Virus record (IMG/VR): IMGVR_UViG_3300032242_001775
Location: 1 to 25,981 of that record
Strand: one strand, 5' to 3'
Length of the DNA stretch: 25,981 bases
Source: a virus
Below the pieces are notes generated by a model, which was given only the letters and a program-made list of their open reading frames with translations, was not told the origin of the DNA and ran no database searches. Of this stretch, positions 5,006 through 25,981 are shown piece after piece. Numbering within the stretch: the stretch's first letter is position 1; each line of letters begins with the position of its first letter. The translations under genes were made by a program, and so were the position numbers.

Positions 5006-5535
5006 GCCGTTTTTACGCCGATGTAACCGACCACGGCGAGGATTGAGAGCAGGGCAATCCCACGCCACCAAAGAAGCTCAGAAAGCGCCGTTTGTTGTTT
5101 AGACCTCCAGTAGACCACGTCATTTTGAGCCGACTCCAGTTGCCGGGCCTGTTCGTTGACTTTCCCGACATATTGACCAACGGCGATCTGGGCCGCGTTG
5201 AGCGAGTTGGTCAGTTCCGTAAAGGCCTTCTCGCCACCGGGGGCGACATAGCCACTCAGGGCGACCGCTGCCGTGCTGGCCGAGGAGACCGAGGAAACGA
5301 CCGCCACCGGCGATGGGGCGATGTAGTCATGCTTTGGAGCCGATGCGCATCCTGAAAGGGTCAGGATCACGATAAATGGCGTTACCCTCGCGGCCCATTT
5401 GAGGAGTTTTTCGTGAAGCCGGTGGCGAAAGATCACAATCTGCCATCCAAGGGCAAGCTGGATTGAGGTCAGAACGTAGAGAAGGCTGAACCAGAAATGC
5501 CGCGCCAGTAATCCGACGATGCGGAGGATATTCAT
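4987..5535 (-). CDS. Spanin-like lipoprotein with C-terminal membrane anchor
   Basis: This 182-aa frame starts at ATG 5535 behind a strong GGAGGAG ribosome site and a TTTTGACA box. A hydrophobic segment at about 14-35 is followed by a second one that ends in a lipobox, LTLSGC (Cys63). A GTG at 5436 (residue 34) preceded by GGATGG would give a 149-aa form that begins with a standard lipoprotein signal peptide (IFRHRLHEKLLKW... then the lipobox). Downstream is an Ala/Ser/Val-rich region, a helical Gln/Asn-rich stretch (about 103-150), and a membrane segment at about 155-174. Outer-membrane lipidation plus an inner-membrane C-terminal anchor is the architecture of unimolecular spanins. It lies within the lysis cassette. 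The function is inferred. Confidence 0.6.
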   Translation of the reverse strand: MNILRIVGLLARHFWFSLLYVLTSIQLALGWQIVIFRHRLHEKLLKWAARVTPFIVILTLSGCASAPKHDYIAPSPVAVVSSVSSASTAAVALSGYVAPGGEKAFTELTNSLNAAQIAVGQYVGKVNEQARQLESAQNDVVYWRSKQQTALSELLWWRGIALLSILAVVGYIGVKTAWRFTF

Positions 5536-5558
5536 CTCCTCCAGAGGCGTGTCAAAAC

Positions 5559-5840
5559 TTAGTGCCGTGTCAGGGCGTCTTCAATCCTGCGACAACGGAG
5601 GTCAATGGATTGAACCGTGGCCGCTACCGAAGCCAGAAGCTCCCGACGTTGCGCGGCGTCCTGTTCGATGGCGGCGAGCCTGCCGTCCTGAAGCCGATCG
5701 TGTTCTTCAATAGAGGAAACGCGGAATGGAATATAAATAATCCCCGCAAGGGCAACAAAAATGGCAAGAAGGCCATGACCGCCACCGGCAGCCAGAAAAA
5801 GTTCTTTAAGTGATTGGGAAAGAGGCTTGAGATCACTCAT
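5559..5840 (-). CDS. Small membrane protein with coiled-coil tail (lysis-associated)
   Basis: This 93-aa protein begins at ATG 5840, overlapping the fibre stop (ATGA). A polar N-terminus of about 20 residues precedes one membrane segment (LLAIFVALAGIIYIPF, about 24-39). It then has a long charged heptad-like helix (SSIEEHDRLQDGRLAAIEQDA...) to the end. Such a layout fits either a phage holin-like protein or an inner-membrane spanin subunit (Rz-like). It is followed by the lipoprotein gene after 23 bp. No specific family is recognised. Confidence 0.6.
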   Translation of the reverse strand: MSDLKPLSQSLKELFLAAGGGHGLLAIFVALAGIIYIPFRVSSIEEHDRLQDGRLAAIEQDAAQRRELLASVAATVQSIDLRCRRIEDALTRH

Positions 5841-7957
5841 ATCAGTTTTGTGAATACGGCCACGGCCCCAGAGAGTAGCGTCGATGTTCCGGTTGCTGTT
5901 CCGGTTTGGGAAAACTGAATTTTCATGGTCGGCGCGGAGGAGCCGGTCATGATGTAATAAACCGCCGCTGAGGGGTTGTTGGTATTGCCGGTGCTTTGGC
6001 GATTGATGAAAGCGTACAAGTTACCGGATGGGTTGGAGAATCCAGCATCAGTTCGAGATCCGAAAATGACATACCATCCTTGCGCGGACGCATTGGCGAT
6101 AGCTTGAGTGGAATTGAGAACCAGATACTGCGATCCACCGCTGACGCACGTGTGACGGCCGGCAAACTCAAACCGATACATCGTGTTGGCTTCCAAGACA
6201 AAATTGGTAAGCCCCGTGACGTCGGCAAGCGTTGTGTTGGTGCTGTTCATGTCTGCCGTCGATTTCTTGGCAATGACGGGAAGATTGCTGAGATCGGTAT
6301 ACGAACCGCTGGTGGCTACGGTTGCCAAGGAAGGGGTTCCAGAGAGCGCAGAATAGGCCCCAGAGGTGGCGACCGAGGAAAGGCCGGTAATCTGTGACGC
6401 CGAAAGTGTCAGCGCATCGCTTCCCCCGCTGGCGTGGCTGGAAGCGTGAACCGAAGGTGTCCTTGAGTCGGTGAGCCGTGTGTCGGAACCATAAACCACT
6501 TGCGTTGCCGATGCATTGCCAGAGGCCGGAATGTCTTTAGCCGATGCCGTGCCTAGTGTTGGAAAATCCGTGATCTGGCTTTTTGTGTGGGTATGCGATG
6601 CGGCAGCCGCACCAATGTCGGCTGCGCTCAGTGAATCCGATCCACCCGTGGCATGGGTGGATTTGTGAGCAAGCGTGGAGGAGGGGGTCCTGGCATCGGT
6701 CAGTCGTGTATCCGATCCGTAGACCACTTGCGTGGCCGAGGCGTTGCCTGTTGCTGGAATATCTTTAGATGCAGCGGTTCCCAGAGTCGGTTTGCTGGTA
6801 AGGTCGGTATACGACCCGCTGGTTGCAACCGTGGCGAGTGATGGTTTGCTTGTGAGGTCGGTATAAGACCCGCTGAAAAAAGTTGGCTTGTTTAGGATCA
6901 CGCCCAAGCCGGAAGAGGCATTCCAATCCGACTGAACTTGAGCCGTAGATGGAGAAATCTCCACGTAGATCGAACCCGTCCAGCGGTAAATTTTACCAGA
7001 TCCCGTGGCCACATAGATCTTGCCAGTTTCTCCCGTGGCGGGAAAATTGCTGGTGCCCGCGTATTCTAGCACATCGTCTACATAGCTGGGAAGCTGAGAC
7101 GCAGGAACAAGGCCGCCCACAAGCGTTGCGTAATTTCCAGCCGTTTGAGCGCCCAATGAAGACAAAGTCGGAAGGTCGCTGGTGAGGGCAAGAATGCCCG
7201 ATGACGATGGAAGCACAATATTGTATTCGGAACCGGCATAGATGCGAGAAATTCCAGATGCACTGTAAGAAGTTGATGTGTCGCCATTATCAAGCGCAAT
7301 CAACACATTGTTGCTAAATACGCTTACCGATTCACCATTGCCGGTTGTTGCTATATCGTTGACTTGTAGAGGCGAACTGCTTGATGCCAAAGCAATCGTT
7401 CCAGAGGCTGCTGGCAGGGAAACTACATAATCTGTCTGATCTAATTGTGGATGCGTTAAATGAAATGAACCATCACCGCCAGTTGCATTAAACAAAATAC
7501 CATCAACGTTTCCGGTAAAACCAAGAGAAATTCCACCTGTGTAGTCAGGCAGATTTATAGGATCTAAAAGAGCAACAGAACTGGCTACAATACTGATTCC
7601 CGGTTGGTTGTTTAAAGCAAGCGTTCCCGATAACGATGGCAAAGTTACGCTGAGAGACTGACCACTGGAAAGTGATGGGGCAAAGACATCAATTGTTCCT
7701 TGATTCTGGCTTCCATGCGTCATTTCAAAACCATGACCGTCGGCGTAAAAGCCCGGAAAGATTCCTCCTTGAAGGGTTCCATCCGAGGTGTTGACTGCTA
7801 CAAATGTCGGAGAATCAGTCGTATTGAGGCTTTGGTCGTAGGAAACGCCGCCACCGGACGGGCCTACATTTACCACCTCGGTGATTTCAGGGGTGTTGGA
7901 AGAGACCACAACGTTCTGTGGCGTCGAATCCGAGACCACCACTGTGATGTCACTCAT
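5837..7957 (-). CDS. Tail fibre / receptor-binding protein with internal repeats
   Basis: This 706-aa fibre is Ser/Thr/Gly-rich. The N-terminus (MSDITVVVSDSTPQ...) is probably the attachment domain. Residues 45-260 hold beta-rich units ending SGTLAL, SGTIAL or SGILAL. Residues 285-335 (LPSYVDDVLEYAG...GKIYRWTGSIYVEIS) match a segment widely seen in phage tail fibres. Residues 360-560 are repeats with SYTDLTSKP, GSDTRLTD and HTHTKSQITDFP. The last ~140 residues (from ADMNSTNTTLADVTG) form a distinct domain (TMYRFEFAGRHT...) that is a plausible receptor-binding head. Its start overlaps the upstream gene stop. It likely determines host range. Confidence 0.85.
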   Translation of the reverse strand: MSDITVVVSDSTPQNVVVSSNTPEITEVVNVGPSGGGVSYDQSLNTTDSPTFVAVNTSDGTLQGGIFPGFYADGHGFEMTHGSQNQGTIDVFAPSLSSGQSLSVTLPSLSGTLALNNQPGISIVASSVALLDPINLPDYTGGISLGFTGNVDGILFNATGGDGSFHLTHPQLDQTDYVVSLPAASGTIALASSSSPLQVNDIATTGNGESVSVFSNNVLIALDNGDTSTSYSASGISRIYAGSEYNIVLPSSSGILALTSDLPTLSSLGAQTAGNYATLVGGLVPASQLPSYVDDVLEYAGTSNFPATGETGKIYVATGSGKIYRWTGSIYVEISPSTAQVQSDWNASSGLGVILNKPTFFSGSYTDLTSKPSLATVATSGSYTDLTSKPTLGTAASKDIPATGNASATQVVYGSDTRLTDARTPSSTLAHKSTHATGGSDSLSAADIGAAAASHTHTKSQITDFPTLGTASAKDIPASGNASATQVVYGSDTRLTDSRTPSVHASSHASGGSDALTLSASQITGLSSVATSGAYSALSGTPSLATVATSGSYTDLSNLPVIAKKSTADMNSTNTTLADVTGLTNFVLEANTMYRFEFAGRHTCVSGGSQYLVLNSTQAIANASAQGWYVIFGSRTDAGFSNPSGNLYAFINRQSTGNTNNPSAAVYYIMTGSSAPTMKIQFSQTGTATGTSTLLSGAVAVFTKLI
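6386..6787 (-). repeat. Two-copy ~58-residue repeat in the tail fibre
   Basis: Residues 391-448 and 467-524 of the fibre are duplicates. Both carry TLGTA..KDIPA.GNASATQ, then VVYGSDTRLTD.RTPS, then HA.GGSD. The encoding DNA (6614-6787 and 6386-6559) is similar but clearly diverged at third positions and by short indels, so the duplication is not recent. Shorter SYTDLTSKP-type units recur nearby (residues 364-391 and 546-560). Confidence 0.8.
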
Positions 7958-8298
7958 GATATGGCTGGGGTGATGGTTGCCGTTCCCTCGATTAGGGAGA
8001 CCTTAGACCCGTCGGCCTTGGTCATGATGACATCAAAGACATGGGACGCATCACTTGGGAATGGCACAGGGATCAAAGCCGTGACCGCAGGAGTCATGCT
8101 GAAAGTGACTTTTCCCTGAGTGGGATTGGTCACGGTCGGCGTGTATGATGCCAGAAGAGAATATCCGGCAGCCCGCCGGATGCGGGCGACAAAGGTGCAG
8201 CCGGTAAGGTTAATGGCCGCGCTGGTCGAGTCGGTAAGGGTGAGAGAAAAGCTTTCCGATGCACCCTGCTTGATGGTTCTGGAAAGCGTGTTAGCCAT
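7954..8298 (-). CDS. Baseplate/fibre-associated beta-sandwich-like protein
   Basis: ATG 8298 is chosen (MANTLSRTIKQGASESFSL), giving 114 aa. The frame is open upstream but overlaps the glycosyltransferase. A TTTTGACA box lies 15 nt before this ATG, supporting it. The sequence alternates beta strands (FSLTLTDSTS, INLTGCTFVARIRR, KVTFSMTPAVT, HVFDVIMTKADG, TATITPA). This resembles the N-terminal immunoglobulin-like domain of BppU-type baseplate proteins, which link fibres to the tail tip. It immediately precedes the fibre with a 4-bp overlap. The family assignment is by pattern only. Confidence 0.6.
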   Translation of the reverse strand: MANTLSRTIKQGASESFSLTLTDSTSAAINLTGCTFVARIRRAAGYSLLASYTPTVTNPTQGKVTFSMTPAVTALIPVPFPSDASHVFDVIMTKADGSKVSLIEGTATITPAIS

Positions 8299-8315
8299 TG
8301 ATACTATGATCAATG

Positions 8316-9563
8316 TCAAAACATCAGTCCCGATGGACCACATATCATAGCATCTCGCAGGGAAATGGTAACAAAAGGCAACCACCCTTCCTTTTCTGAC
8401 ATGGGGCAGAGCGTTAATTCCGTTGGAATCTTTTGCGGCGGAAAGTAATCAAACTCGATTTTTAGTTCATGGCATTGTTGGGAAAATATGTCAGGCTTTT
8501 CCTCTCGGTAAACATCTTGACGGTACAAGTCTCGGCCATACTGATCCTTGATTACAAAAGCCAAAAAAAGGGCATCTTTGATGCCATTGATTTTCAAAGG
8601 ATTCCAAATAACAAAATCGGAAAATCTTTTGGCAACAGCATGAAACCTAGAAGAATCAGTAAGGTTCACGGGAGGAGGAAGGTTTTCCAAAACGTCAAGG
8701 TGAAGGATTCCCCTTTTGTAATCTATGCCTGAATAATTTATCCAATCTTGCAAGGACCGGACCTTTCCTATTCCAAAGGCCCCAAGATCGGCAGATTCTT
8801 TGCCCAATAAGCTTTTCAGACGTTGAGCTGCCACATTGTTCATCTCCGCCCAATCGGAAATGTCACTCCAATGACGTGGTGATCCTTGCCTGGTATAATG
8901 ATGCCAGCAGATGTGTCGGTCTGGATGCCAAAGATCAAAACCATTAGTAAATAGCCGCACGGCCATTGAAGTTTCCTCTCCTTTGAAATACATCTCGGGA
9001 TCGTAGGGAACTTTTTGAATCATTTCTCCGGTTCCAAAAACAAAACCAGCAGCAAAATGCCTTGCTCTCCAAGGTCCAGACCGCATGGATCGATGAGGAT
9101 GATCTGGTTCGGCATCAACGTCCTCTCCAAGATTGGTGATTTTGATGACAAGTGGAACAGGATGCCACGCGGCGCGATCTTCCTGTGGCGTAAATCCTGC
9201 CGGATACGAAGTCAGGATGGCTTTTGAGTTTTGAAGTCGTTTGAAACAATCAATCGTTGTTGTATCCCAATTTTTTGCAAAACGGGTGTGTGAGTCCACT
9301 TGAAGCACAAAATCCTCCCCTTGGTACCTTTGATTGCAGAGGCTCCTTGCCCAACAAGCACCCCTGCTTTGAATTGACGGTATCTTGATAACCCGAAAGC
9401 GCGGGTCATGATCATAAATTGAAGGGTTTTCTTTTTCTCCAAATTGCCAACAAATACCAAAAGTCAGATTTTCCGGAAACTCAGCCTGAATGAGCGCATC
9501 GGCAACGGTATTGGGTAGATCGTGGTCTCGATAACTTGCAATCTGAACATAGATTTTCACCAT
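8316..9563 (-). CDS. Glycosyltransferase, GlcNAc (Skp1-type) family
   Basis: The start is placed at ATG 9563, giving 415 aa (MVKIYVQIASYRDHDLPNT). The extra frame upstream overlaps the zinc-ribbon gene. The N-terminus IQIASYRD-like strand, the SRGACWARSL segment and the catalytic FVLQVDSHTRF (Asp90-x-His92, metal/nucleotide-sugar site) fit the GlcNAc/Skp1-type glycosyltransferase family. So do FAAGFVFGTGEM and MYFKGEETSMAVRLFTNGFDLWHPDRHICWHHY. Such enzymes move a sugar from a nucleotide donor to a hydroxyl acceptor. Residues after about 300 form a separate C-terminal region. It lies among tail-tip genes, so the acceptor may be a virion protein or host surface glycan. The acceptor is unknown. 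Confidence 0.85.
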   Translation of the reverse strand: MVKIYVQIASYRDHDLPNTVADALIQAEFPENLTFGICWQFGEKENPSIYDHDPRFRVIKIPSIQSRGACWARSLCNQRYQGEDFVLQVDSHTRFAKNWDTTTIDCFKRLQNSKAILTSYPAGFTPQEDRAAWHPVPLVIKITNLGEDVDAEPDHPHRSMRSGPWRARHFAAGFVFGTGEMIQKVPYDPEMYFKGEETSMAVRLFTNGFDLWHPDRHICWHHYTRQGSPRHWSDISDWAEMNNVAAQRLKSLLGKESADLGAFGIGKVRSLQDWINYSGIDYKRGILHLDVLENLPPPVNLTDSSRFHAVAKRFSDFVIWNPLKINGIKDALFLAFVIKDQYGRDLYRQDVYREEKPDIFSQQCHELKIEFDYFPPQKIPTELTLCPMSEKEGWLPFVTISLRDAMICGPSGLMF

Positions 9564-10087
9564 TTCCCAACAGGACATTTTTCTGTTGCTAGGCGGATCT
9601 TGGCTTGCGTCGAACAACCACAATGCTTGCAGCGTCCAGAACCGGCAAGGGCTGAGGAATCCCAAAAATCACAAGTCTTGCAGATATTTAACCGTTCAGA
9701 CACCTGATCGGTTGTTGACATTTTGAACCCGGAGGATGCCCACCCCGCAACGGCAAGAGAAAGTTTTTTGGCCATCTCAGGCGCATTGGGATATTCAATG
9801 TCGTTTTGGTGAGTTTTTACAAAAATCAGTTCTTTGATTTTTGCAGAAATGGCATTTTCTTGGTTTGTTTTGTCATTTTTAGACAGTTTTTTGCGTATCG
9901 GTTCGAGAATAGAATTTGCAAGGGCGCGATATTGAGGTTCCTCAGTTACAAGCCTCTGCCATAGGTTTAACTGCTCGGCGTAGGTTAAATGCTTGGAATG
10001 AACATGGCTTGGAATCTTGATTGCCTCGTAGTTCAATCTGTTTAAAACCAATTTTAATTCGTCCAAAGTTGGCGGCAATTCAACCAT
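9557..10087 (-). CDS. Phage zinc-ribbon protein
   Basis: This 176-aa protein has a real Shine-Dalgarno sequence (AGGAG) before ATG 10087. Residues 1-125 are helical and charged (LPPTLDELKLVLNRLNYE...). The C-terminus is a cysteine cluster: CKTC (136, 139), CKHCGC (153, 156, 158) and EKCPVGKW (171), a zinc-ribbon arrangement repeatedly found in phage proteins next to tail or glycosyltransferase genes. Its stop overlaps the glycosyltransferase start by 7 bp. The gene is AT-rich compared with the head genes. The function is not known. A role as an adaptor or scaffold for the neighbouring transferase is possible. Confidence 0.7.
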   Translation of the reverse strand: MVELPPTLDELKLVLNRLNYEAIKIPSHVHSKHLTYAEQLNLWQRLVTEEPQYRALANSILEPIRKKLSKNDKTNQENAISAKIKELIFVKTHQNDIEYPNAPEMAKKLSLAVAGWASSGFKMSTTDQVSERLNICKTCDFWDSSALAGSGRCKHCGCSTQAKIRLATEKCPVGKW

Positions 10088-10092
10088 AACTC

Positions 10093-11823: not shown

Positions 11824-11826
11824 AAT

Positions 11827-15034: not shown

Positions 15035-15051
15035 ATCTCAGAGGGGTTGAG

Positions 15052-15891
15052 TCAAAAAGGTTGCCCTTCGGCTTTTTTTAACGCGGCCTTGATCTCATAT
15101 CCCATGCTTTTGAAAAACTTCTCACGCGAGATCCTGATGGCTTCCTTGTGGTCTTTAGGTCGGAGGGCCTTCTCGCCCCACGGGATCTTTGAAGTCAACG
15201 TGATGTGCGGAAGCAATCCCTCACTTTTGTCCGTCACGGCATGAGGAACACGGGAGACATGACGTTTTACCCATGCCGGGATGCCTCGAAGGGCATCTTT
15301 CACGTCGGCATTGACATCCTGGGCACAGGCAGCCCAAGCAGACTTTGTCAGTCCAACCAGATCCTGACGGGCCGTGATGTAGGATTTTACCTCTTTGGAA
15401 TCCATGACCACAATCCGGCTTTTCCATCTTTTGCGAACTCGCCCGTAATCATTACGAGTTCGTTTGTGAATGGAAGGATCAACCGACCGGTCAAAAAGTA
15501 AATTGCTGAAAGTCGGAAGGTGACCGAGGATGGTTTTTAATTTAGCAGGATCGGACGCTTTGATAGCGGAGAGAACGGCCAATTTGAGCCGAGGGCTTTT
15601 GGTGATGTATTTCTCAATCTGTTCTTTGAAACTCAAAGCACGAGAAGGATGTTTTAATGAAATGGGTTTGGATGGAGTGTAGACTCTGATGATGTCGTTC
15701 TGGACGGCAATCTCACCTTTCTTTTTTGCTTTTGGATCTGATCCATAAGGGGGCACGGAATATGCGAGATTCACTCCCAAAAGTCGCGCTCCTCGGCGGA
15801 GCGATCCGGAAATCTCTTTGCCGGTGACTTCTTCGTAACGCCTCATGCGCTTGAGAAGCCTGCTAAAATCCACTTCGGTTTTCTTTGCCAT
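15052..15891 (-). CDS. Basic minor tail protein (unknown family)
   Basis: This protein is 279 aa from ATG 15891, or 281 aa from a GTG at 15897. It is very Lys/Arg-rich (MAKKTEVDFSRLLKRMRRYEE...), with helical N- and C-terminal parts and a mid-region containing RKRWKSRIVVMDSKEVKSY. It sits between the ligase cassette and the tape measure. By order it should be a tail completion or minor tail component, but no family is recognised. Upstream, TTTTGACA lies 17 nt from the ATG (11 from the GTG), beyond which is a strong hairpin in the divergent spacer. Confidence 0.65.
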   Translation of the reverse strand: MAKKTEVDFSRLLKRMRRYEEVTGKEISGSLRRGARLLGVNLAYSVPPYGSDPKAKKKGEIAVQNDIIRVYTPSKPISLKHPSRALSFKEQIEKYITKSPRLKLAVLSAIKASDPAKLKTILGHLPTFSNLLFDRSVDPSIHKRTRNDYGRVRKRWKSRIVVMDSKEVKSYITARQDLVGLTKSAWAACAQDVNADVKDALRGIPAWVKRHVSRVPHAVTDKSEGLLPHITLTSKIPWGEKALRPKDHKEAIRISREKFFKSMGYEIKAALKKAEGQPF

Positions 15892-15922
15892 ATCCACTGA
15901 TCACCGGCTGTCAAAACATGAA

Positions 15923-15961
15923 AAAATTTCGGTTTTTGTTATTTACAAAAACCGAATTTTT
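15923..15961. promoter_or_regulatory. Strong AT-rich hairpin in the divergent spacer, possible terminator or operator
   Basis: An 11-bp perfect inverted repeat (TTCGGTTTTTG at 15928-15938 and CAAAAACCGAA at 15946-15956) has a 7-nt loop. After one mismatch it extends by four further A-T pairs. Both strands end in T runs (TTTTT on plus, TTTTTT on minus), so it could terminate transcription in either direction. It lies between the minus-strand tail gene start (15891) and the plus-strand ligase start (15977). It could stop late transcripts that cross the ligase in antisense, or be a protein-binding palindrome. Confidence 0.65.
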
Positions 15962-15976
15962 AGCGAAATTCCACTC

Positions 15977-16834
15977 ATGAGCTTCTCCTTATCCGAGCCA
16001 ATGCTGGCGGCCAATTTCCACATCTTTTCAGGAGTGGAACTGCCCCTCATGGCGTCGCCTAAATATGACGGCATCCGGTGTCTGATTGTGGAGAAAGATG
16101 GGAGACCGGCAGCGGTCACTAGGACAATGAAACCAATCCCCAATTTTGCCACGCGCCTATGGCTAGAGCAAAACTGTCCCATCGGATTCGACGGGGAGTT
16201 GGTCGTCAAGGGAGAGGACTTCCACGGTACTTCCTCGGCCATCATGTCACGGAATGGAAAGCCCGACTTCCTATATGCTGTTTTTGATTATATTGACCCC
16301 AAGGCTGCCACGCCTCTATCAACTGCCTTTTCTGATCGAATTGCCGCGCTGGATCACGTCCTATTGACGCTAAATCTTTCCGGTCGTGTCATTTGCATTG
16401 AGCAGACCCTTGTGCAGTGCATGACGGAACTTACCCCGCTAATGCAACAGGCATTGGATGACAATCATGAGGGCCTTGTGATCCGGCGACCTGATGGTCG
16501 ATACAAGACCGGACGTTCCACTCCAGAGGAGGGCCTCATGCTCAAGCTGAAGCCCTATGAGGACGCCGAAGCGGAAATCGTCGGCATGGAGCCGGAGCGC
16601 AGTGATCTCTTCACCGATGACCGGCTTGGTTCCTTTTTTGTGCGCCTGAAGAGTGACCCATCCATCCGGTTCCATATCGGGACGGGGCTTACCGATCAGC
16701 AGCGCGGAGAGTTTTGGAACAAGCGAGCCAGCATGATGGGCAAGATGATCCGGTTCCGATATCAGTCACGCGGCATGAAATCCGCGCCACGCTTTCCCGT
16801 TTTCCAAGGACTCCGTGATGAAGCCGACATCTAA
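15977..16834 (+). CDS. ATP-dependent DNA ligase (T7-like)
   Basis: This 285-aa protein starts at ATG 15977 (MSFSLSEPMLAANFH). The in-frame extension upstream covers the hairpin and is unlikely to be translated. It seals nicks in duplex DNA through an enzyme-adenylate. Nucleotidyltransferase motifs are clear: motif I SPKYDGIR (Lys29 is the adenylated lysine), a TRTMKPIPN segment, FDGELVV, motif III LYAVFDYI, motif IV EGLVIRRPDGRYK, and motif V MLKLKPYEDAEAEIVG. A C-terminal OB-fold region (about 195-285) completes a minimal phage ligase. It is on the plus strand, against the late operon. No good Shine-Dalgarno sequence is seen. Confidence 0.92.
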   Translation: MSFSLSEPMLAANFHIFSGVELPLMASPKYDGIRCLIVEKDGRPAAVTRTMKPIPNFATRLWLEQNCPIGFDGELVVKGEDFHGTSSAIMSRNGKPDFLYAVFDYIDPKAATPLSTAFSDRIAALDHVLLTLNLSGRVICIEQTLVQCMTELTPLMQQALDDNHEGLVIRRPDGRYKTGRSTPEEGLMLKLKPYEDAEAEIVGMEPERSDLFTDDRLGSFFVRLKSDPSIRFHIGTGLTDQQRGEFWNKRASMMGKMIRFRYQSRGMKSAPRFPVFQGLRDEADI

Positions 16835-18112: not shown

Positions 18113-18140
18113 AAAAAGTTGCCCCCTTTAAGCCGGGGGC
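18113..18140 (-). terminator. Rho-independent terminator after the tail tube gene
   Basis: On the minus strand GCCCCC (18140-18135) pairs with GGGGGC (18126-18121) across an 8-nt loop and is followed by AACTTTTT (18120-18113). It lies 18 bp after the stop of the major tail protein gene. The short GC-only stem with a T tract is a reasonable intrinsic terminator, perhaps partial, limiting read-through into the chaperone and tape measure. Confidence 0.65.
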
Positions 18141-18157
18141 TTGAGCTTTGAAATTCT

Positions 18158-18529: not shown

Positions 18530-18577
18530 AAGGTAGGTGGTTGGGAGTTACTTGGTTGAGTGGTGTCAAATCGCTTT

Positions 18578-18982: not shown

Positions 18983-18985
18983 CGT

Positions 18986-19312
18986 TTACTCGCGGACGGC
19001 GGTGACCAGGATCTCTGCCGACAAAGGTGATCCCGGCAGGCTGGTGGATGTCTCCACCCGGTAAGTGACTCCTTCTTCAACCAAGGTGAGCTTGGTTCCG
19101 ACGGCAGGACGGGCGGCGCGAGTCATCGGCCATCTGGCGCGGATCGATTTGTCCGTATTGAAGCCTCCGGTCTCCAACGACATGGTCGGCTGCGGAACCG
19201 TGACGTGGGCATAAAAGGCCGTTCCGGTGCCGAGCTGGATCAGTGTCCCCATTGCATCGGCAGCCACGTTGGCTGCGCGGACTCGGAATGCGGCAATCGA
19301 GGATCGGTTCAC
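18986..19312 (-). CDS. Head-tail connector / joining protein
   Basis: This 108-aa protein starts at a GTG (19312) with a TTTTGACA box 14 nt upstream, which supports this start over the internal ATG at residue 21. After an N-terminal helix (SIAAFRVRAANVAADAMG) the sequence is beta-rich: IQLGTGTAFYAHV, RAARPAVGTKLTLVEEGVTYRVETS and SAEILVTAVRE. This resembles small head-closure or head-tail joining proteins located between capsid and tail terminator. The assignment rests on position and fold pattern. Confidence 0.55.
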   Translation of the reverse strand: MNRSSIAAFRVRAANVAADAMGTLIQLGTGTAFYAHVTVPQPTMSLETGGFNTDKSIRARWPMTRAARPAVGTKLTLVEEGVTYRVETSTSLPGSPLSAEILVTAVRE

Positions 19313-19336
19313 AGAGAAGCCGCGCCTGTCAAAAGC

Positions 19337-19377
19337 TACAAAAAGCGAAAGGCCGCCTCCCGTGAAGGAAGCGGCCT
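19337..19377 (-). terminator. Rho-independent terminator after the major capsid gene
   Basis: On the minus strand AGGCCGC (19377-19371) pairs with GCGGCCT (19356-19350), and the stem extends inward through TTCC with a G-T pair to about 11 bp. It is followed by TTCGCTTTTTG (19349-19339). It lies 22 bp past the capsid stop codon. A GC-rich stem plus a T run makes this the most convincing intrinsic terminator in the window. Confidence 0.75.
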
Positions 19378-19398
19378 CTGCTTGAGAACCTAAGAGAC

Positions 19399-20310
19399 TT
19401 AGGCGGTGATGAACTTCAGGGCCGATCCGTCGGCCTTGGCCGCACCGAAGATCACATCAAAGCTTCCGTAGAGGGAACGGCTGGAGAGTGATCCCCAGAT
19501 ATTCATCTGAACGGACAGACCGAGATCAGCGATCTCGATCACCTCGCTCTGCTGGAGGAGACCAGCAACGGCGGGGTCGATGTACGGGAGGGCGGAAGCC
19601 ATCGCCAGAGCCTCTGGGGAAGCCGCAAATCCCTTGATGGTCTTTGTGGTGCCGTTGAGGAGGGCATCGCTGCCACCGGTGACTCCGGTCCAGCGGTTGT
19701 TGATGAACACGCCATCAAACCCGAACGCACCCTGGTTGCCCCAGTTGATGCTGTATCCGGTTTGCGGGAGCAGATACGCGATGTAGCTGCCGTCCAGAAC
19801 GAGGTTCTTTGCTGTTCCGTCCTTGAGGGCGGAATACAGAGCAGGGAGACCCGCCGTGATGAGGGTGTTGCCAAGTTGACCACCGGTCGCCGTGCTGATC
19901 GCCGTGTTATATGCGGCGGTTCCGTAGGCGGACGTGGTGAGGGGTGTCAGGGCCGCGTCGATGACAGAATTTGCCAGAGCGCGGAGGTTGGCTGTCATGA
20001 CCTTCTCCAGCTTGAAGCCCTTGTTGAGCTGGTCGCTGGTGAGGCCGAATGTGGCCGAGTAATGATTCATCGAGACAGCGGCTGCCGTCACGGTGTCACC
20101 CTGTGCCTCAAAGGACGTAGGATTGGTCTGCGCGGCGGCAGCATTGCCGACGACACCGACCTGAATGGTGCGACGGGCGGCGGATGCCACAACGTCACTG
20201 GAGAAGTCTGTATTGAAAGCCTTGAGGGCCGCCAATTTCGACTGAAGCACGGTCACGGCAGCCGCTGTTGCGGTGTCCACGACCAGTGCTGAGGAATAGC
20301 TGTTAGCCAT
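19399..20310 (-). CDS. Major capsid protein
   Basis: This 303-aa protein is the only good candidate for the head shell subunit and follows the protease/scaffold gene in the normal order. The composition is Ala/Thr/Ser/Gly-rich with little charge. It begins MANSYSSALVVDTATAAAVTVLQSKLAALKAF, with middle segments SMNHYSATFGLTSDQLN and LRALANSVIDAALTPL typical of HK97-fold coat proteins. The C-terminus is LSVQMNIWGSLSSRSLYGSFDVIFGAAKADGSALKFITA. The leader has repeated CAACC units and no Shine-Dalgarno sequence, and a terminator follows the gene. Both suggest separately tuned high expression. Confidence 0.85.
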   Translation of the reverse strand: MANSYSSALVVDTATAAAVTVLQSKLAALKAFNTDFSSDVVASAARRTIQVGVVGNAAAAQTNPTSFEAQGDTVTAAAVSMNHYSATFGLTSDQLNKGFKLEKVMTANLRALANSVIDAALTPLTTSAYGTAAYNTAISTATGGQLGNTLITAGLPALYSALKDGTAKNLVLDGSYIAYLLPQTGYSINWGNQGAFGFDGVFINNRWTGVTGGSDALLNGTTKTIKGFAASPEALAMASALPYIDPAVAGLLQQSEVIEIADLGLSVQMNIWGSLSSRSLYGSFDVIFGAAKADGSALKFITA

Positions 20311-20334
20311 AGTGTTGGTTGGTTGGGGTTGGGG

Positions 20335-20976
20335 TTATTTCAACCGCGCGGCAATGGATCGCTCGATCTCTTGTCGGTTGGCTTGAAAAAATGAAAGACG
20401 TTCTGGTCCGGCAGACATGGACTCGTACTGCTCAATGATCGAGAGGGCCGGAGCCTCCTCGACGATCTCAGGGATTTCGATGGATGCGGAAAGGCCCATC
20501 ACCGAAAGGACGCTGCGATGGAGGAAACGAAGTTCCACCATCTCGCTGTCGCGCTTGGAAAGTTCGGTTTTAGCCGTTTCCAGATCGCTCTGGACGCGGG
20601 AAAGCTCGGTCTGGATTTTGGAAAGCTCGGTCCGGGTGGACTCCAGCTCGGTCGTGACCGCGTTCCAAGAACGGGATAGCTCGGCTGGAGCAGGAACCTT
20701 TTCCTTTTTTGATGGTTCGTCCACCTTGACCTCTTCGGGAAGATTTTGTGTTCCTTCAGGACCCTTCACTTCTTTGCCGCCTTCGGGATCGTTCTGGGTG
20801 CCTTCCGGCCCCTTGACTTCCAGCTCTTCCTTGACCTCGGAAGCGGGTTCCTCGGTCACCTCTGGGGCGACTTCGGCAACCTTTGCGGCGGGTTCGATGG
20901 TGGGTTCTGAGACCACCTCTTCAGCGGTCACGGCGATCTCCTCGACGGGAGCCTCTGGGGTGGTGGGTTCACTCAT
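20335..20976 (-). CDS. Nested scaffold protein (internal start in the protease gene)
   Basis: An in-frame ATG at 20976 (MSEPTTPEAPVEEI) would give a 213-aa product comprising the acidic, repeated and coiled-coil half of the protease gene. The leader before this ATG reads TTTTTTCCAACCCATCT, the same CAACC-type leader seen before the capsid and tail tube starts. Lambda C/Nu3 and related phages make scaffold from such a nested start. Residues 110-150 are a long heptad-like helix (ELESTRTELSKIQTELSRVQ...). This is inferred from layout. Confidence 0.5.
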   Translation of the reverse strand: MSEPTTPEAPVEEIAVTAEEVVSEPTIEPAAKVAEVAPEVTEEPASEVKEELEVKGPEGTQNDPEGGKEVKGPEGTQNLPEEVKVDEPSKKEKVPAPAELSRSWNAVTTELESTRTELSKIQTELSRVQSDLETAKTELSKRDSEMVELRFLHRSVLSVMGLSASIEIPEIVEEAPALSIIEQYESMSAGPERLSFFQANRQEIERSIAARLK

Positions 20977-21543
20977 AGATGGGTTGGAAAAAAGTCCGTT
21001 TCCGTTGCCGGTGGCGGGATTGGCGACCAGATCCGCGCTGTAAAGCTCACAGACCCGTGCCGCATAGGCCACGATGTCGTCTTGGTACTGCGGGTTGATT
21101 GATCCAGAGACATCGTCCTCGTCGCCATCCGGCTCCATGTCTTTGCCGTTGATGGCTTCCGGCGCATTCATGAAGGAAATGGAGATGCCAAAATTGCTAG
21201 GCATGGTTTCGGCCATCTCAATGATGGTCGCGTAGTTCTCGTGACTCTTGAGGAGATAAAGGTCACCACGGGCGCAGTCGCCATCGGCAACAATGTCACG
21301 GATGGAGCCGATCAACTCCTCGATGTCGGTGCCGTGGGCAAGCTTAACCGGAACCCCATCGGGGAAGGTGGCGGCTGCGGCCACAACTTCAGTAATGGTC
21401 TGATCGTCAATGATCATCGGCTCACCGAGGAAGCTGTGTCCTTTGGCTTCACCCTTGGTGATGACTCGGACGCCACGGATCACTCCGCCCTCGGCGTCGA
21501 CGCGGGAATCGGTAGCTGTTGCAAATAGCGAGACCTTGGACAT
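20335..21543 (-). CDS. Prohead protease fused to scaffold
   Basis: This 402-aa protein starts at ATG 21543 (MSKVSLFATATDSRVDAEGG) with a GGGAAGG site and a TTTGACA box in front. Residues 1-165 look like a phage head-maturation serine protease: VPVKLAHGTDIEELIGSIRDI with His near residue 70, DLYLLKSHENY, and SNFGISISF with the probable nucleophile Ser. A stretch of Pro/Glu/Val-rich repeats follows (EVKGPEGTQN twice), then a coiled coil (about 300-350) and a C-terminal helical tail (SFFQANRQEIERSIAARLK), as in scaffolds. It precedes the capsid gene by 24 bp. Confidence 0.8.
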   Translation of the reverse strand: MSKVSLFATATDSRVDAEGGVIRGVRVITKGEAKGHSFLGEPMIIDDQTITEVVAAAATFPDGVPVKLAHGTDIEELIGSIRDIVADGDCARGDLYLLKSHENYATIIEMAETMPSNFGISISFMNAPEAINGKDMEPDGDEDDVSGSINPQYQDDIVAYAARVCELYSADLVANPATGNGNGLFSNPSMSEPTTPEAPVEEIAVTAEEVVSEPTIEPAAKVAEVAPEVTEEPASEVKEELEVKGPEGTQNDPEGGKEVKGPEGTQNLPEEVKVDEPSKKEKVPAPAELSRSWNAVTTELESTRTELSKIQTELSRVQSDLETAKTELSKRDSEMVELRFLHRSVLSVMGLSASIEIPEIVEEAPALSIIEQYESMSAGPERLSFFQANRQEIERSIAARLK

Positions 21544-21560
21544 TGCTTTCCTTCCCAATG

Positions 21561-23063
21561 TCAAACCGCAGAAGCTGAATTTGGTGCCGACTGATCCACC
21601 GAGCCCGGAGTTCCGGGTGCCGGAGGAAAGACTTCGGAAGTTGTGAGTTCCACCCCTTCCTGTGAGGCGATCTCCTGCACAAGTTTCTTCCGGCGGGCCG
21701 CGAAGCGGATGATGTCGGCGTCCTGAGTGTCGGCATCCAATCCTTGCAGGGCGTAATATCTCTGCGGGGAAATCTGACCACGGAGCAGGAGGTCACTCAT
21801 CAGGCGTCCATCTCTTCCGAAATCCACCGACAGGCGGGCCGGAGGCGTAAAGTCCACCCTCCACCAATCCTCTCCATCGTTGGGCATCGGAAGCCGACCG
21901 GCTTGGATCTCATTCCAAATCCAGAACCTCCAGAACGGCGCCGCAAAACTCTGGGTGATGATATCGCGGATCTCATCAAGCGCGGAAGCGGCCTCTTCTA
22001 AGATCCAGCGTTGGTTGGCACCACCGGCGTCCGTGGAACAAAAAAGAAACTGGCTTGAAAATCCAAGGCCCACACTGATCTCCTCTTTGAGAGTTTCAAG
22101 GAACTCTTTCATGTTCCCGGCGGGGTGGTTGTTGAGAATGCTCTCCACCTTTTCTCCGGGCTTGAGCTGCGGAATGATGGAGCCATTGGACAAAGCATCC
22201 ACGGTCATCGGTTGCTGACTGCTGGTGGACTGACCCTTGACCAGTGAAGAACCAAGTCCGATCTGCCCGGCCTCTGGTGAGGTGATCACCAAAGCCATCG
22301 AGGCACCGATCTTGGCCGACTGTTTCTCAAAGGCAAGATATTCGGCAATGTCTTGAAGGGTATTGGCGGCGCGGGCCAGCCAGCTGGGTGCGCGGGTGTA
22401 CCCCACGCGATAAGCACGGCGAACGTGGCCTCCCATGTCCTCGGCGCGGACATCGTTGTAGTCTTGAGAGGCCGGAGCTTTCAGCACCCGGTAGCGGATT
22501 GGCTTGCCAAGCTTCCCGACCTGAACACCGTCCACCCATCCTTCATCCTCTTTGCCGACGGGCGATCCAACATTTTCTCCAGGGATAATGCGAAAAAGCC
22601 CACGCCCTGAACTGGAGGTGATCCGTTGCCAGAATACGTCACCGGCAATCGCCATCTGGCGCACCAGAAGCGGGACCGCCTGATCAAAGTTCACAAAGCC
22701 TGCGACATCCACACCGAAAGCGGCATTCTTGCAAGAGTCACCAAAAGCCTGCTCGGCTTGACGGTTCCACTTCTCATCCATCGTGCGGGCCTGCGGCTGA
22801 AGCGGGCCGACAAGGCGGGCAATCTTGTCCACGGCACCTCCGGCCAAACCGCTGTTGTTGTAAAGCCACTGCGCTTTCTTGATCAGCTCCTGACGGCTTC
22901 CCGATGAAAGCTCCTTTTGAGCATCCAGCGTCGGGCTATAAATCCACATCCGTTGCGGATTAAACCGATAGGATGCCTCGTAAGCTGCAAGATCGGTTGC
23001 GGTTTTCTTGGGGCGTCCGGCTCCGGGGCGTGACCCGCCCCTGTTTGATTTGCGCTCAGTCAT
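21561..23063 (-). CDS. Portal protein (lambda GpB family type)
   Basis: This 500-aa protein starts at ATG 23063. A TTTTTGACA box lies 13 nt before it, and an alternative GTG 12 nt further upstream is less likely. Dodecameric portals form the head vertex through which DNA is packaged. Family features are AQWLYNNSGLAGGAVDKIARLV near the N-terminus, RQMAIAGDVFWQRI, LFRIIPGENVGSP, VDALSNGSIIPQLKPGEKVE and the tail SQFLFCSTDAGGANQRWILEEA...FAAPFWRFWIWNEI. An unusual N-terminal arm GGSRPGAGRPKK resembles DNA-binding GR-rich motifs. The C-terminus is Pro/Ser-rich. The gene stop is the TGA within the next gene's TTTGACA box. Confidence 0.9.
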   Translation of the reverse strand: MTERKSNRGGSRPGAGRPKKTATDLAAYEASYRFNPQRMWIYSPTLDAQKELSSGSRQELIKKAQWLYNNSGLAGGAVDKIARLVGPLQPQARTMDEKWNRQAEQAFGDSCKNAAFGVDVAGFVNFDQAVPLLVRQMAIAGDVFWQRITSSSGRGLFRIIPGENVGSPVGKEDEGWVDGVQVGKLGKPIRYRVLKAPASQDYNDVRAEDMGGHVRRAYRVGYTRAPSWLARAANTLQDIAEYLAFEKQSAKIGASMALVITSPEAGQIGLGSSLVKGQSTSSQQPMTVDALSNGSIIPQLKPGEKVESILNNHPAGNMKEFLETLKEEISVGLGFSSQFLFCSTDAGGANQRWILEEAASALDEIRDIITQSFAAPFWRFWIWNEIQAGRLPMPNDGEDWWRVDFTPPARLSVDFGRDGRLMSDLLLRGQISPQRYYALQGLDADTQDADIIRFAARRKKLVQEIASQEGVELTTSEVFPPAPGTPGSVDQSAPNSASAV

Positions 23064-23171
23064 ACCGACCGCCACCTGTCAAAAATCAAAGGGAAATCAA
23101 ACGGGGTTACCCGCGCTGGCATTTGCCATATAGAGCCGACCGATATGGCCGACACGCGGGCCAAGAAAAAC

Positions 23172-23486
23172 TCAGGTCACCGACCACGTCCGAGAATAGT
23201 CGGGACGGGTGCCAAGCTGGCGGCTGGTAATCGTTCCGTCGGAGTTGGCAGGATAGTCACCCTTTTCCTTGCGGACATCCATCACGATTTCCAGATACAA
23301 CCACTTGGGAAAAGTGACCTCGCCATTGGCCGACCCGCCATCGGAGGCCGTGCCGGTAATCGTGACCTCCTCCGTTGCGGAAAGGAATATGGCATCGGAC
23401 AGAACCTGAAGCTCCTCAAGGCTCTTGTAGCGGAGATAGCTTTTGATTCCAGAGACCCTCTGGTGATCGACCGTGTTGACGCTCAT
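23172..23486 (-). CDS. Small head-tail connector-like protein
   Basis: This 104-aa protein starts at ATG 23486 with TTTGACT 13 nt upstream. It lies between large terminase and portal, where lambda-like phages have gpW. The sequence has a helix (IKSYLRYKSLEELQVLSDAIFLS), two strands (EEVTITGTASDGG, ANGEVTFPKWLYLEIVMDV) and a polar tail ending RPDYSRTWSVT. Resemblance to gpW is positional rather than motif-based. After its TGA stop the same frame stays open for 24 more codons (VFLGPRVGHIGRLYMANA...), so a longer product by read-through is conceivable but unproven. Confidence 0.55.
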   Translation of the reverse strand: MSVNTVDHQRVSGIKSYLRYKSLEELQVLSDAIFLSATEEVTITGTASDGGSANGEVTFPKWLYLEIVMDVRKEKGDYPANSDGTITSRQLGTRPDYSRTWSVT

Positions 23487-23515
23487 GCCAACGCGGCCAA
23501 GTCAAACCATGCTGA

Positions 23516-25282
23516 TCAGTTTTCTTTTACAGGATCCGGTTCCCTGCGACCGAAATTGTTCCTCATGATTGCCCAGGCCACGCAGTGGAGTTTCGAGCAG
23601 TCTCCGTAGTGATCGGCGGCGACTTTTTTCCAGTAGAATGGAGAGACCCGGGAGTTCTTATTCTCCAGCATCTGCTGGCCGGAATGGCCGTCGATAAAGT
23701 CACGTCCTACGTCCTCGGGAAGATGCAGCCGTGGCGGGAGCTTCTTTTTGATGCGCTCGAGATAGAGGTGCGTCTTCCACGCAAAGTCGCCGTAGGTGTA
23801 GAGCAGGAGATTCAGCCCCTTGATGGATGTCACGGCGTAATTCCCGAACGTGCTTTCGGATCCTTTCGATGGGTAGTAGAGTCCTCCTGACTTGGCACAG
23901 ACGCCATAAACCCTTTCTGTCAGGAAGCCGGAATCGATCAGTCCCGCCGTGATCCCGATCACATCCCCTCCCCCGGGCAACTGATACCGGCGGGACGCTA
24001 GGAAATCCGCAGAGATCAGATCCTCCACCGACAAGACGGTGCCGTAATCGATGACCCAGCTCTCTCCCTGGTCATTGCGAGCTTCCACCGACCAGTGGGT
24101 CTGTTTCTCACCCGGATCAGCGCACATGGTCAGGATCACCGGAGATCCATCCCTCACGACCTCATCGGGAATGTCACGCAGCCGGTAGCCGGTACGCAGA
24201 TCGAGGATCGCCTCTTCCCGAACCGATGCGGCGCGGTTTTCAAATGGCAAGCCCTCGTAGGTATTCCGAAAATCATGCAGGCCTCCGGGAGTGGATTGCT
24301 TCTGGAGGAACAGCTTGGCCAGTTCCCCCCACGTCATCTGGGGCGAATACAGGGCGGAAATATGGCAGGAGATATGATCCCGGGGCGCGGAGGGATTTCC
24401 AGCAATCCACCTCCCGGAGGCCACAAGATCCCTCTGGATCTCCTGTGGCCAAAGTTCCCCGCAATCCCGGCACTGATAGCAGGCAGAATCGGCCACGCCA
24501 TCCAGATCCCATGCCCCTCCCGGCAGGCGAAGATCATCAGACCACCGAACCTGGTCGAACTCAAGATGCTGCTCTGATCCACAGGACCGGCAGGCGACAT
24601 GGTAACGGTGCTGACTACCGGCCATGAACTGCGTCCAGATCGCCGATGTCTCGACCGTGGGAGTCGATGCCAGGACACGTTTGCAGATGTTCCGGTAGAA
24701 GTTCGTGCGGGCCATCGCCAGCTCAAGGGAAGGAGCTTCCGTAGCGGAGGCGTCCGGCCACTTGTCCACCTCGTCACAGAAAAGGTAGCGGGTGGGGCGA
24801 GAGGCAAGATTGGCCTCTGAGTTGGAGCCGACCAGCTTGACCGTGCAGCTCTTGAATTGCATCTCGGTTTTCTTAAAGAGATCGGGATCCTCCGGCATGA
24901 ATGGACGCAGCGCTGCGCACGACCGGACACGCGGGATCAGTTCACGCTCGCTCCAGCTCTTGGCGTTCTCAGCCGTCGAGGTGACATAGAGCACCGGCCC
25001 CGGATCCTCGGCGACGGCGTACTGGATGAGATTGGCCAGCAGGGTGGTACCACCGATCTGGGCGCTTTTCACAAAGGTTATCTGCCGGATCGTGCGATCT
25101 CCAAACCAGAGGTGAAGCTGACGAAGGTACGGCGTAAAATCACAGGAGAATCGTCCTGGGCGCGGGGAGAAGCGAGGATCCAGAACGATCTCCCTCTCGG
25201 CCCATGTCAGCGGATCAACACGGTCTTTCGGCTCCCACATCGAGGCGAGATCCGACTCAAGCCTCTGGAGTGCCGGTGACAT
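23516..25282 (-). CDS. Terminase large subunit (GpA family)
   Basis: This 588-aa protein, with ATG 25282, overlaps the small terminase by 26 bp. It is the ATPase-nuclease motor that cuts and packages DNA. The N-terminal ATPase has the Walker A-like VKSAQIGGTT (about 71-80), the coupling segment LASTPTVE, and Walker B RYLFCDE (Asp170-Glu171). A cysteine cluster at CRSCG (231, 234) and CYQCRDC (268, 271, 274) fits the zinc-binding insert seen in GpA-type terminases. The nuclease half has MCADPG (Asp389), GLIDSG (Asp450) and DHYGDCSKL. The RNase H-like order is complete. Confidence 0.93.
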   Translation of the reverse strand: MSPALQRLESDLASMWEPKDRVDPLTWAEREIVLDPRFSPRPGRFSCDFTPYLRQLHLWFGDRTIRQITFVKSAQIGGTTLLANLIQYAVAEDPGPVLYVTSTAENAKSWSERELIPRVRSCAALRPFMPEDPDLFKKTEMQFKSCTVKLVGSNSEANLASRPTRYLFCDEVDKWPDASATEAPSLELAMARTNFYRNICKRVLASTPTVETSAIWTQFMAGSQHRYHVACRSCGSEQHLEFDQVRWSDDLRLPGGAWDLDGVADSACYQCRDCGELWPQEIQRDLVASGRWIAGNPSAPRDHISCHISALYSPQMTWGELAKLFLQKQSTPGGLHDFRNTYEGLPFENRAASVREEAILDLRTGYRLRDIPDEVVRDGSPVILTMCADPGEKQTHWSVEARNDQGESWVIDYGTVLSVEDLISADFLASRRYQLPGGGDVIGITAGLIDSGFLTERVYGVCAKSGGLYYPSKGSESTFGNYAVTSIKGLNLLLYTYGDFAWKTHLYLERIKKKLPPRLHLPEDVGRDFIDGHSGQQMLENKNSRVSPFYWKKVAADHYGDCSKLHCVAWAIMRNNFGRREPDPVKEN

Positions 25283-25862
25283 CGGTGGCGGGGGTTTTTG
25301 TAATCCACGGAGCCGATGCCGAAGCACTGGCAAGCTCGCGGAGGATGGCGACCACTTCTTCTCTGACAATCCCTCCGACATCAACATGGGACTCGATCCG
25401 AGCCGCAAGGACATCGGGAAGGTTTTCCATCAACTGCTTGGCCATTGCCATATTCCCCAGGATAAACTCGGAAACCTTGGAAACATCGACAAGGCGACCG
25501 GCTGCGGTGGCGATCTTGAGGTTGTTCTCAGAAACCGAAGCCCAGAGCTTGTGCGCTTCGATGGAGGACTTCAGAAGAGTCGGAAGGGAGTTGATGTCAC
25601 CTCGGGATTCGGCCTGATCACAGAGCAGACTCAGCCTGGCATGGCGCACGGCAGCGGCCTGCTCGGTTTCCTCCGGGGTCATGGGCTTGGCACTGGCCTC
25701 GGGACGTGCAAAGGAAAACTGAGAATCCTGTGCACGTGACCGCAGGAAATCGCGCCAACGGGGGTCGTCGGAGTTGCGCCAATTCCGAACGGCGCGGACG
25801 GAGACGGAATGGACCTTGGCACATTCCTCGATTAGGGCGGATTCATGGCGGGACTTCCTCAT
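25257..25862 (-). CDS. Terminase small subunit
   Basis: This 201-aa protein begins at ATG 25862 (MRKSRHESALIEECAKVHS). The N-terminus is a helix-turn-helix-like DNA-recognition domain (ALIEECAKVHSVSVRAVRNW, then RWRDFLRSRA). The middle (about 70-160) is helical and probably mediates oligomerisation. The Ala-rich C-terminus contacts the large subunit in known systems. It is the first gene of the visible late operon. A TTTGACA box lies 13 nt before the ATG and direct repeats lie just upstream. The 3' end overlaps the large subunit gene by 26 bp. Confidence 0.8.
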   Translation of the reverse strand: MRKSRHESALIEECAKVHSVSVRAVRNWRNSDDPRWRDFLRSRAQDSQFSFARPEASAKPMTPEETEQAAAVRHARLSLLCDQAESRGDINSLPTLLKSSIEAHKLWASVSENNLKIATAAGRLVDVSKVSEFILGNMAMAKQLMENLPDVLAARIESHVDVGGIVREEVVAILRELASASASAPWITKTPATDVTGTPEA

Positions 25863-25981
25863 GGCTTCCGAGGAATGTCAAAGGAACGGAACGGAAGAGA
25901 TCGGGAACGGAAGGAACCTAAGTGGTTCCCTAACCTTGCCGGATAATTCACGCGAAATCTACGGCAGTGCGCCAGATCGGA
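25863..25981 (-). promoter_or_regulatory. Upstream region of terminase small gene with iterons and palindrome
   Basis: The plus strand has GGAACGGAA at 25883-25891, 25888-25896 and 25904-25912. A perfect 6-bp palindrome follows (GGAACC at 25913-25918, GGTTCC at 25924-25929, loop TAAGT). Short repeats next to the small terminase gene are where packaging (cos/pac) recognition sites normally lie. No clear sigma-70 promoter was found. The last ten minus-strand codons before TGA 25950-25948 could be the end of another gene (PIWRTAVDFA), but the window stops there. Confidence 0.35.

What the first reader, a model, noticed from the sequence alone, without database searches (positions are those of the whole stretch)
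5535..25882. TTTGAC(A/T) box at fixed distance upstream of nine start codons
On the coding strand TTTGACA or TTTGACT ends 13 nt before the starts at 25862, 23486 and 23063, 14 nt before 19312 and 5535, 15 nt before 21543, 15034 and 8298, and 17 nt before 15891. A given 6-mer is expected only about six times on one strand of 26 kb, yet here nine sit in one narrow spacing. In three cases (21543, 15034, 8298) the TGA is also the upstream gene's stop. TTGACA resembles a sigma-70 -35 box, but the matching -10 would fall on the start codon, so a normal promoter is unlikely. It could be a translation-initiation signal, an RNA-processing site, or a phage-specific promoter element.
Basis: partly seen in the sequence, partly recalled or inferred. 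Interest (0 to 1): 0.75.

Follow-up and report, generated by a model that had tools for sequence, protein, structure and literature searches.

The report
Conserved TTTGAC box before phage genes
A freshwater temperate phage and about a hundred sequenced relatives carry the same seven-letter DNA word at a nearly fixed distance before the start codons of their virion genes, most likely an undescribed signal for starting protein synthesis in place of the usual Shine-Dalgarno sequence.

Summary
All ten TTTGACW copies in the window lie on the late-gene strand, nine of them 13-17 nt before starts. Over 11 related phage genomes TTGACA and TTTGAC are by far the most start-enriched of all 4096 hexamers (log10 P -62 and -56; next -15). 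At orthologous starts the box is 92-100% identical while both flanks sit at 25-49%. It precedes virion genes with their own start site, is almost absent from translationally coupled junctions (3/84) and from most early gene families. Early genes have Shine-Dalgarno matches (48%); box genes barely exceed shuffles. There is no -10 or -35 partner. A deeply diverged lineage carries a variant, GTTGAC, at d=16 before the same gene classes. Best reading: a translation-start element, like the start-associated sequences of cluster K mycobacteriophages but without a Shine-Dalgarno core. Main rival: a stoperator-like repressor site; mycobacteriophage stoperators share the TTGACA core, orientation and start proximity, but here no copy lies at the early control region. 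No host genome could be reached, so the mechanism stays inferred.

The parts
25876..25882 (-). box TTTGACA, 13 nt before ATG 25862 (terminase small subunit)
   Evidence: phrog_57 weak match for the gene; box before orthologue in 11-14 of 15 genomes
23500..23506 (-). box TTTGACT, 13 nt before ATG 23486 (small gene between terminase and portal)
   Evidence: 15/15 orthologues have the box
23077..23083 (-). box TTTGACA, 13 nt before ATG 23063 (portal protein)
   Evidence: PF05136; 18/20 orthologues have the box, 17 at d=14
21559..21565 (-). box TTTGACA, 15 nt before ATG 21543 (gene after portal, protease position); its TGA is the portal stop
   Evidence: box in 8-9 of 9 orthologues, d 16-19
19327..19333 (-). 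box TTTGACA, 14 nt before GTG 19312 (head-completion position)
   Evidence: 8/8 orthologues, all GTG starts
18564..18570 (-). tenth TTTGACA, about 34 nt before ATG 18529 (tail protein position), CA-rich spacer
   Evidence: orthologues with box at d 30-40
15909..15915 (-). box TTTGACA, 17 nt before ATG 15891; lies antisense inside the ligase gene 15845-16834(+)
   Evidence: 7/9 orthologues
15050..15056 (-). box TTTGACT, 15 nt before ATG 15034 (tape measure protein); its TGA is the upstream stop
   Evidence: tape measure PHROGs; 10/18 orthologues
8314..8320 (-). box TTTGACA, 15 nt before ATG 8298 (tail fibre assembly-like); its TGA is the upstream stop
   Evidence: phrog_3304; 7/11 orthologues
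5550..5556 (-). box TTTGACA, 14 nt before ATG 5535 (late gene of unknown function near the lysis genes)
   Evidence: 7/7 orthologues
23516..25414 (-). terminase large subunit, overlaps the small subunit gene and has no box (coupled control)
   Evidence: PF05876; 0/20 orthologues with box
19399..20310 (-). likely major capsid gene (by position); no box, CA-rich leader AACCCCAACCCCAACCAACCAACACT
   Evidence: box in 1/12 orthologues

Best explanation
TTTGACW is a start-associated translation signal of the late mRNA. It is placed about 20 nt upstream of the AUG/GUG (first base at -20 to -24), at the 5' edge of where an initiating 30S subunit sits. It recruits or positions ribosomes on virion genes that have their own start site and lack a Shine-Dalgarno (SD) sequence; overlapping genes are instead fed by translational coupling, and the capsid and some tail genes use CA-rich open leaders. 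Early genes of the same phages use SD sequences. What reads the box is unknown: a phage-encoded or host RNA-binding protein, or an rRNA contact. Shown: the motif, its start-locked spacing, its conservation, its gene-class and coupling pattern, the early-SD/late-non-SD split, the lack of promoter partner elements, and a variant box (GTTGAC) in a second lineage. Inferred: that it acts in RNA and through the ribosome.
For: Start-locked even where the intergenic gap is large (80-280 nt): small terminase, head-completion and tail genes. Box in 3/84 coupled junctions against 41/88 at gaps of 11-60 nt and 57/211 above 60 nt. Nearly absolute conservation between diverged flanks. SD match of 5 nt or more: early genes 48% (shuffled 11%), box genes 12% (6.6%), late genes without box 4% (2.6%). 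Box sits the same distance before very small conserved ORFs (28-34 codons) and before some 9-16 codon leader ORFs that end 2-4 nt before, or overlap, the next gene. ATG and GTG both serve. No -10/-35 partner. Lineage variant GTTGAC at d=16 before small terminase, pre-portal, protease-like and tape-measure-like genes of a phage with only 27% identical terminase.
Against: TTGACA is avoided inside genes on both strands of the strong-box clade (15 against 36.6 expected sense, 30 against 54.8 antisense), which a pure RNA signal does not predict; TATAAT is depleted too, so the cause may be general. Known DNA-level stoperators show a similar start proximity. Spacers of 19-44 nt occur, long for a direct ribosome contact. 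E. coli 16S has no exact complement. The region around the start is not less folded than shuffled sequence. Sites not next to a longer ORF have a start codon at d 13-18 in 23 of 105 cases, roughly the chance rate by my estimate, so the leader ORFs are suggestive only.
Confidence: 0.48

Rival explanations
1. Stoperator-like site: the box is an asymmetric DNA site bound by the phage's immunity repressor, which stops transcription into late genes in the prophage.
For: Temperate phage with tyrosine-type integrase. Mycobacteriophage stoperators carry TTGACA/TTGA on the coding strand, and many of the intergenic ones end 10-16 nt before late-gene starts (D29, Dalmatian, TheloniousMonk). They keep one orientation relative to transcription and have group-specific consensus (PMC6550527, PMC9283540), as TTTGACW and GTTGAC do here. 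TTGACA avoided on both strands in genes of the strong-box clade only.
Against: No TTGACA/TTTGACW functional-looking site in the 2.5 kb before the early operon of 11 genomes, whereas stoperator systems have operators at the early promoter. Start locking is far tighter than in D29. Only 7 bp conserved, not 13. No L5-type repressor identified.
Confidence: 0.26
2. Late promoter element: the box is the core promoter read by host RNA polymerase with a phage factor, giving mRNAs with a leader of a few nucleotides, which would also explain the missing SD.
For: Late-gene bias, lack of SD in box genes, avoidance on both strands, resemblance to the -35 hexamer; a conserved early HTH protein (cluster 4) in most of the clade.
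Against: A -10 would fall inside the gene and is not there; no second element upstream or downstream. A promoter before each uncoupled gene of one operon is unlikely in a 30 kb phage, and no RNA polymerase gene turned up among the proteins scanned. The bacterial leaderless -10 lies about 12 nt before the start, not 14-20 (PMC3160421). The HTH protein's fold search gave nothing significant.
Confidence: 0.14
3. Host-wide non-SD start signal: the host's own genes use TTTGAC, and the phage only follows its host.
For: A diverged lineage carries a related box; some Verrucomicrobia are reported SD-scarce (PMC10783764), and the closest isolated relative is an Akkermansia phage.
Against: Early genes of the same phages lack it and use SD. 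Phages with related integrase or endolysin genes (G028, G030) lack the TTTGAC box. Akkermansia phages lack it. The one MAG holding a relative shows no clear enrichment.
Confidence: 0.08

Closest known systems
Start-associated sequences (SAS) of cluster K mycobacteriophages (PMC3203893, PMC12699233)
   Same: Short, asymmetric, one orientation, many copies per phage, tied to start codons of genes that are not closely coupled, kept before orthologous genes, rare elsewhere, function untested.
   Different: SAS is 13 bp with an SD core, 3-7 nt before the start, before non-structural genes; the present box is 7 bp, has no SD core, lies 13-18 nt before the start, mainly before virion genes, and its genes lack SD.
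Stoperators of cluster A mycobacteriophages L5/D29/Bxb1 (PMC9283540, PMC6550527)
   Same: TTGACA or TTGA core on the coding strand, one orientation, often 10-16 nt before late-gene starts, lineage-specific variants, temperate phages.
   Different: 13 bp with a second half-site; operator copies at the early promoter; SD lies between site and start; start distance less uniform. Here 7 bp, no early operator, no SD.
Shine-Dalgarno sequence
   Same: Short mRNA element at a bounded distance before the start of genes that must initiate on their own.
   Different: Not complementary to CCUCC, and about 8 nt further upstream.
Sigma-70 -35 element
   Same: Sequence TTGACA.
   Different: No -10 at 14-19 nt; would start transcription inside the gene.

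Membership tests
Cluster K start-associated sequence (SAS) | asymmetric repeat in one orientation tied to start codons across orthologues | tested here: met
Cluster K start-associated sequence (SAS) | 13-bp GGGATAGGAGCCC with SD core, 3-7 nt before start | tested here: not met
   TTTGACW, 13-18 nt before start; definition
Cluster K start-associated sequence (SAS) | restricted to non-structural genes | tested here: not met
   virion genes carry it, most early families do not
Stoperator | asymmetric site with TTGACA/TTGA core, oriented with transcription, intergenic | tested here: met
Stoperator | copies (operators) at the early promoter/immunity region | tested here: not met
   none in 11 genomes
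Stoperator | 13-bp extended consensus with second half-site | tested here: not met
   flat logo outside the 7-mer
Stoperator | bound by the phage immunity repressor | not testable with these tools
   needs binding assay
Sigma-70 promoter | -10 hexamer 15-19 nt downstream of TTGACA | tested here: not met
   2.54 against 2.56 matches in shuffles, none at 5 or better
Shine-Dalgarno / extended anti-SD pairing | complementarity to 16S rRNA | tested here: inconclusive
   no TGTCAA or GTCAAA in E. coli 16S; host 16S not available
Hairpin operator (RNA-binding protein site with box in loop) | arms flanking the box pair in most copies | tested here: not met
   arm-swap control, mean rank 0.51

The most novel reading that the evidence does not exclude
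A phage lineage splits its genes into early SD-led and late SD-less translation, and drives the late class with its own non-SD ribosome-recruiting word, UUUGACA at -20, read by a dedicated (possibly phage-made) factor whose specificity has diverged to GUUGAC in a sister lineage.
Probability: 0.3. Interest if true: 0.85.

Novelty: new variant of a known kind. Interest (0 to 1): 0.62.

Why it matters
If it is a translation signal, it is a non-Shine-Dalgarno initiation element with a defined sequence and distance, in a phage that uses Shine-Dalgarno for its early genes; that makes a temporal switch at the level of translation directly testable. If it is a repressor site, it shows that stoperator-type silencing, known from mycobacteriophages, arose in an unrelated phage group with the same core word and placement. 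In both cases the box is also a practical marker for true gene starts and small genes in these phages.

Tried and rejected
(1) Hairpin with the box in the loop: striking in some copies (small terminase gene, pre-portal gene), but swapping arms between genes gives equally good pairing (mean rank 0.51), so rejected as a general feature. (2) Spacer hairpin: only slightly more folded than shuffles (stem 2.81 against 2.62). In 45 long-spacer boxes 9 have significant hairpins, mostly in related tail genes, the rest are CA-rich and open, so not general. (3) Sigma-70 promoter or -10-like element: no partner. (4) Complementarity to 16S: none exact in E. coli; host unknown. (5) Host by prophage search: both genome scans gave no convincing host. 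The single good match, L048, is a 33 kb phage-sized contig in a MAG labelled Burkholderiaceae, probably a binned phage. (6) Candidate reader protein, the early HTH protein of cluster 4: no family match at the default cut-off, low-confidence model (pLDDT 62), no significant fold match. (7) Literature on such a box in Verrucomicrobia or late phage genes: none found.

Full report
WHAT WAS CLAIMED AND WHAT IS THERE. The window is a 25,981-base IMG/VR virus fragment. Its - strand carries a lambda-type virion module: gpA-type terminase and portal, tape measure, tail fibre assembly-like protein, endolysin. A tyrosine-type integrase lies on the + strand at 239-1432, so the phage is probably temperate. 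All nine boxes are at the stated coordinates and distances, and the three stop overlaps are correct (ORF ends). TTTGACW occurs 10 times, all on the late-gene strand; nine lie 13-17 nt before starts (P about 1e-22). The tenth, at 18564-18570, lies about 34 nt before a tail-gene start whose orthologues also carry a box at d 30-40 in several relatives.

IT IS CONSERVED. A scan with the terminase gave 40 viral contigs, a profile scan 79 (about half of them new). The distance d from the end of TTTGAC to the next start peaks sharply at 14. Over 11 phage genomes TTGACA and TTTGAC are by far the most start-enriched of all 4096 hexamers (log10 P -62 and -56; next best -15). At orthologous starts the box is 92-100% identical, while the 20 nt before and 13 nt after are 25-49% identical, near chance for most genes. 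The logo shows TTTGAC followed by A (82%) or T (18%) and nothing else from -60 to the start. In 168 non-redundant boxes found by searching d 13-19, d is 14 in 87, 15-18 in 77, 13 in one. In the clade with 58-62% identical terminase the box is also present, often before GTG starts, so ATG-only counts underrate it.

WHICH GENES. In 20 genomes clustered by protein similarity: portal 18/20, the small gene before portal 15/15, head-completion gene 8/8, protease-position gene 8/9, small terminase 11/15, tape measure 10/18, cluster 25 7/7. Early and lysogeny families: 0/19, 0/16, 0/15, 0/14, integrase 0/12. One early family (cluster 24) has a box at longer distance in most members. Large terminase (overlaps the small one) 0/20; likely capsid gene 1/12, with a CA-rich leader instead. 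Junctions with 10 nt or less between genes have a box in 3/84 cases, 11-60 nt in 41/88, above 60 nt in 57/211. Early genes have SD matches of 5 nt or more in 48% (shuffled 11%); box genes 12% (6.6%); late genes without box 4% (2.6%). The box also lies 14-15 nt before a conserved 28-34-codon gene, and before a few 9-16-codon leader ORFs that end 2-4 nt before, or overlap, the next gene; the latter are too few to exceed chance by themselves.

A SECOND LINEAGE. G029, a 55 kb phage with a 61% identical integrase but a 27% identical large terminase, has GTTGAC as its most start-enriched hexamer. Six copies lie exactly 16 nt and one 17 nt before starts of small terminase, a gene before portal, protease-like, tape-measure-like and other late genes. 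Its relatives keep GTTGAC 15-18 nt before late genes, small terminase among them. Two other phages sharing integrase or endolysin genes (G028, G030) have no such box, and Akkermansia phages have none.

MECHANISM. Three readings were weighed. (a) Translation: favoured by start locking at all gap sizes, by absence from coupled genes and by the early-SD/late-non-SD split. (b) Repressor-bound stoperator: favoured by the precedent that known stoperators of D29, Dalmatian and TheloniousMonk carry TTGACA/TTGA on the coding strand and often end 10-16 nt before late-gene starts, and by avoidance of TTGACA inside genes on both strands in the strong-box clade only (rank 25 of 1914 hexamer pairs; TATAAT is avoided too, so this is suggestive). 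Against it: no copy in the early control region of 11 genomes, tighter start locking, a shorter motif. (c) Late promoter: no partner element and an implausible layout. I commit to (a) at 0.48, with (b) at 0.26.

COMPARISON WITH THE KNOWN. The nearest described kind is the start-associated sequence of cluster K mycobacteriophages, a 13-bp repeat with an SD core 3-7 nt before starts of non-structural genes, of unknown function (PMC3203893; PMC11373665). The present box fails the sequence, distance and gene-class features and is therefore not an SAS, but is the same kind of thing: a start-associated sequence. It also fails the early-operator and 13-bp features of stoperators. I found no paper describing TTTGAC or GTTGAC boxes before phage late genes.

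LIMITS. Genes were called by simple ORF rules and start consistency, so counts per family can shift by one or two. No host genome could be reached, so host 16S and host gene starts are untested; Verrucomicrobiota is only a guess from the closest isolated relative (33% identical terminase of an Akkermansia phage). All functional statements are inference.

Noticed in passing
window 199-238 (+), just before the integrase 239-1432: Sequence looks like the 3' end of a tRNA (T-arm and acceptor stem, reverse complement), a likely attP core; a lead to the host.
   Followed up: no
window 15845-16834 (+): ATP-dependent DNA ligase gene inserted antisense in the late operon; the box at 15909-15915 lies inside its coding sequence.
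   Followed up: partly
L012 9397, L029 98, L008 6170, L012 11770: Strong inverted repeats flank the box before the small terminase gene (TTCCGTTCC-TTTGACAC-GGAACGGAA) and the pre-portal gene (AAGGCCCC..GGGGCCTT) in some phages; not general.
   Followed up: yes
L129 13142, L131 9366, L141 1009, L142 2226 and 3913: Tail genes with a long spacer have a GCCGC..GCGGC hairpin directly abutting the ATG downstream of the box.
   Followed up: partly
L055 8359, L069 11102, L072 10204, L061: Repeated CCTTCAG/CTTTTAG units fill many short intergenic leaders of these phages, some inside 9-16 codon leader ORFs.
   Followed up: no
L151/L152 (G030): A relative with 29% identical terminase has runs of ACACAC directly before many starts instead of a box (open CA leaders).
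   Followed up: partly
L048 (VERI01000017.1): Phage-sized 33 kb contig placed in a MAG labelled Burkholderiaceae; probably a wrongly binned phage.
   Followed up: partly
L098 record IMGVR_UViG_3300027746_000023 (57.5 kb): Contains near-duplicate box sites about 38.65 kb apart, with small differences; probably two related phage copies joined or a misassembly.
   Followed up: no
window 8316-9665 (-): Glycosyltransferase (phrog_24687) between tail genes.
   Followed up: no
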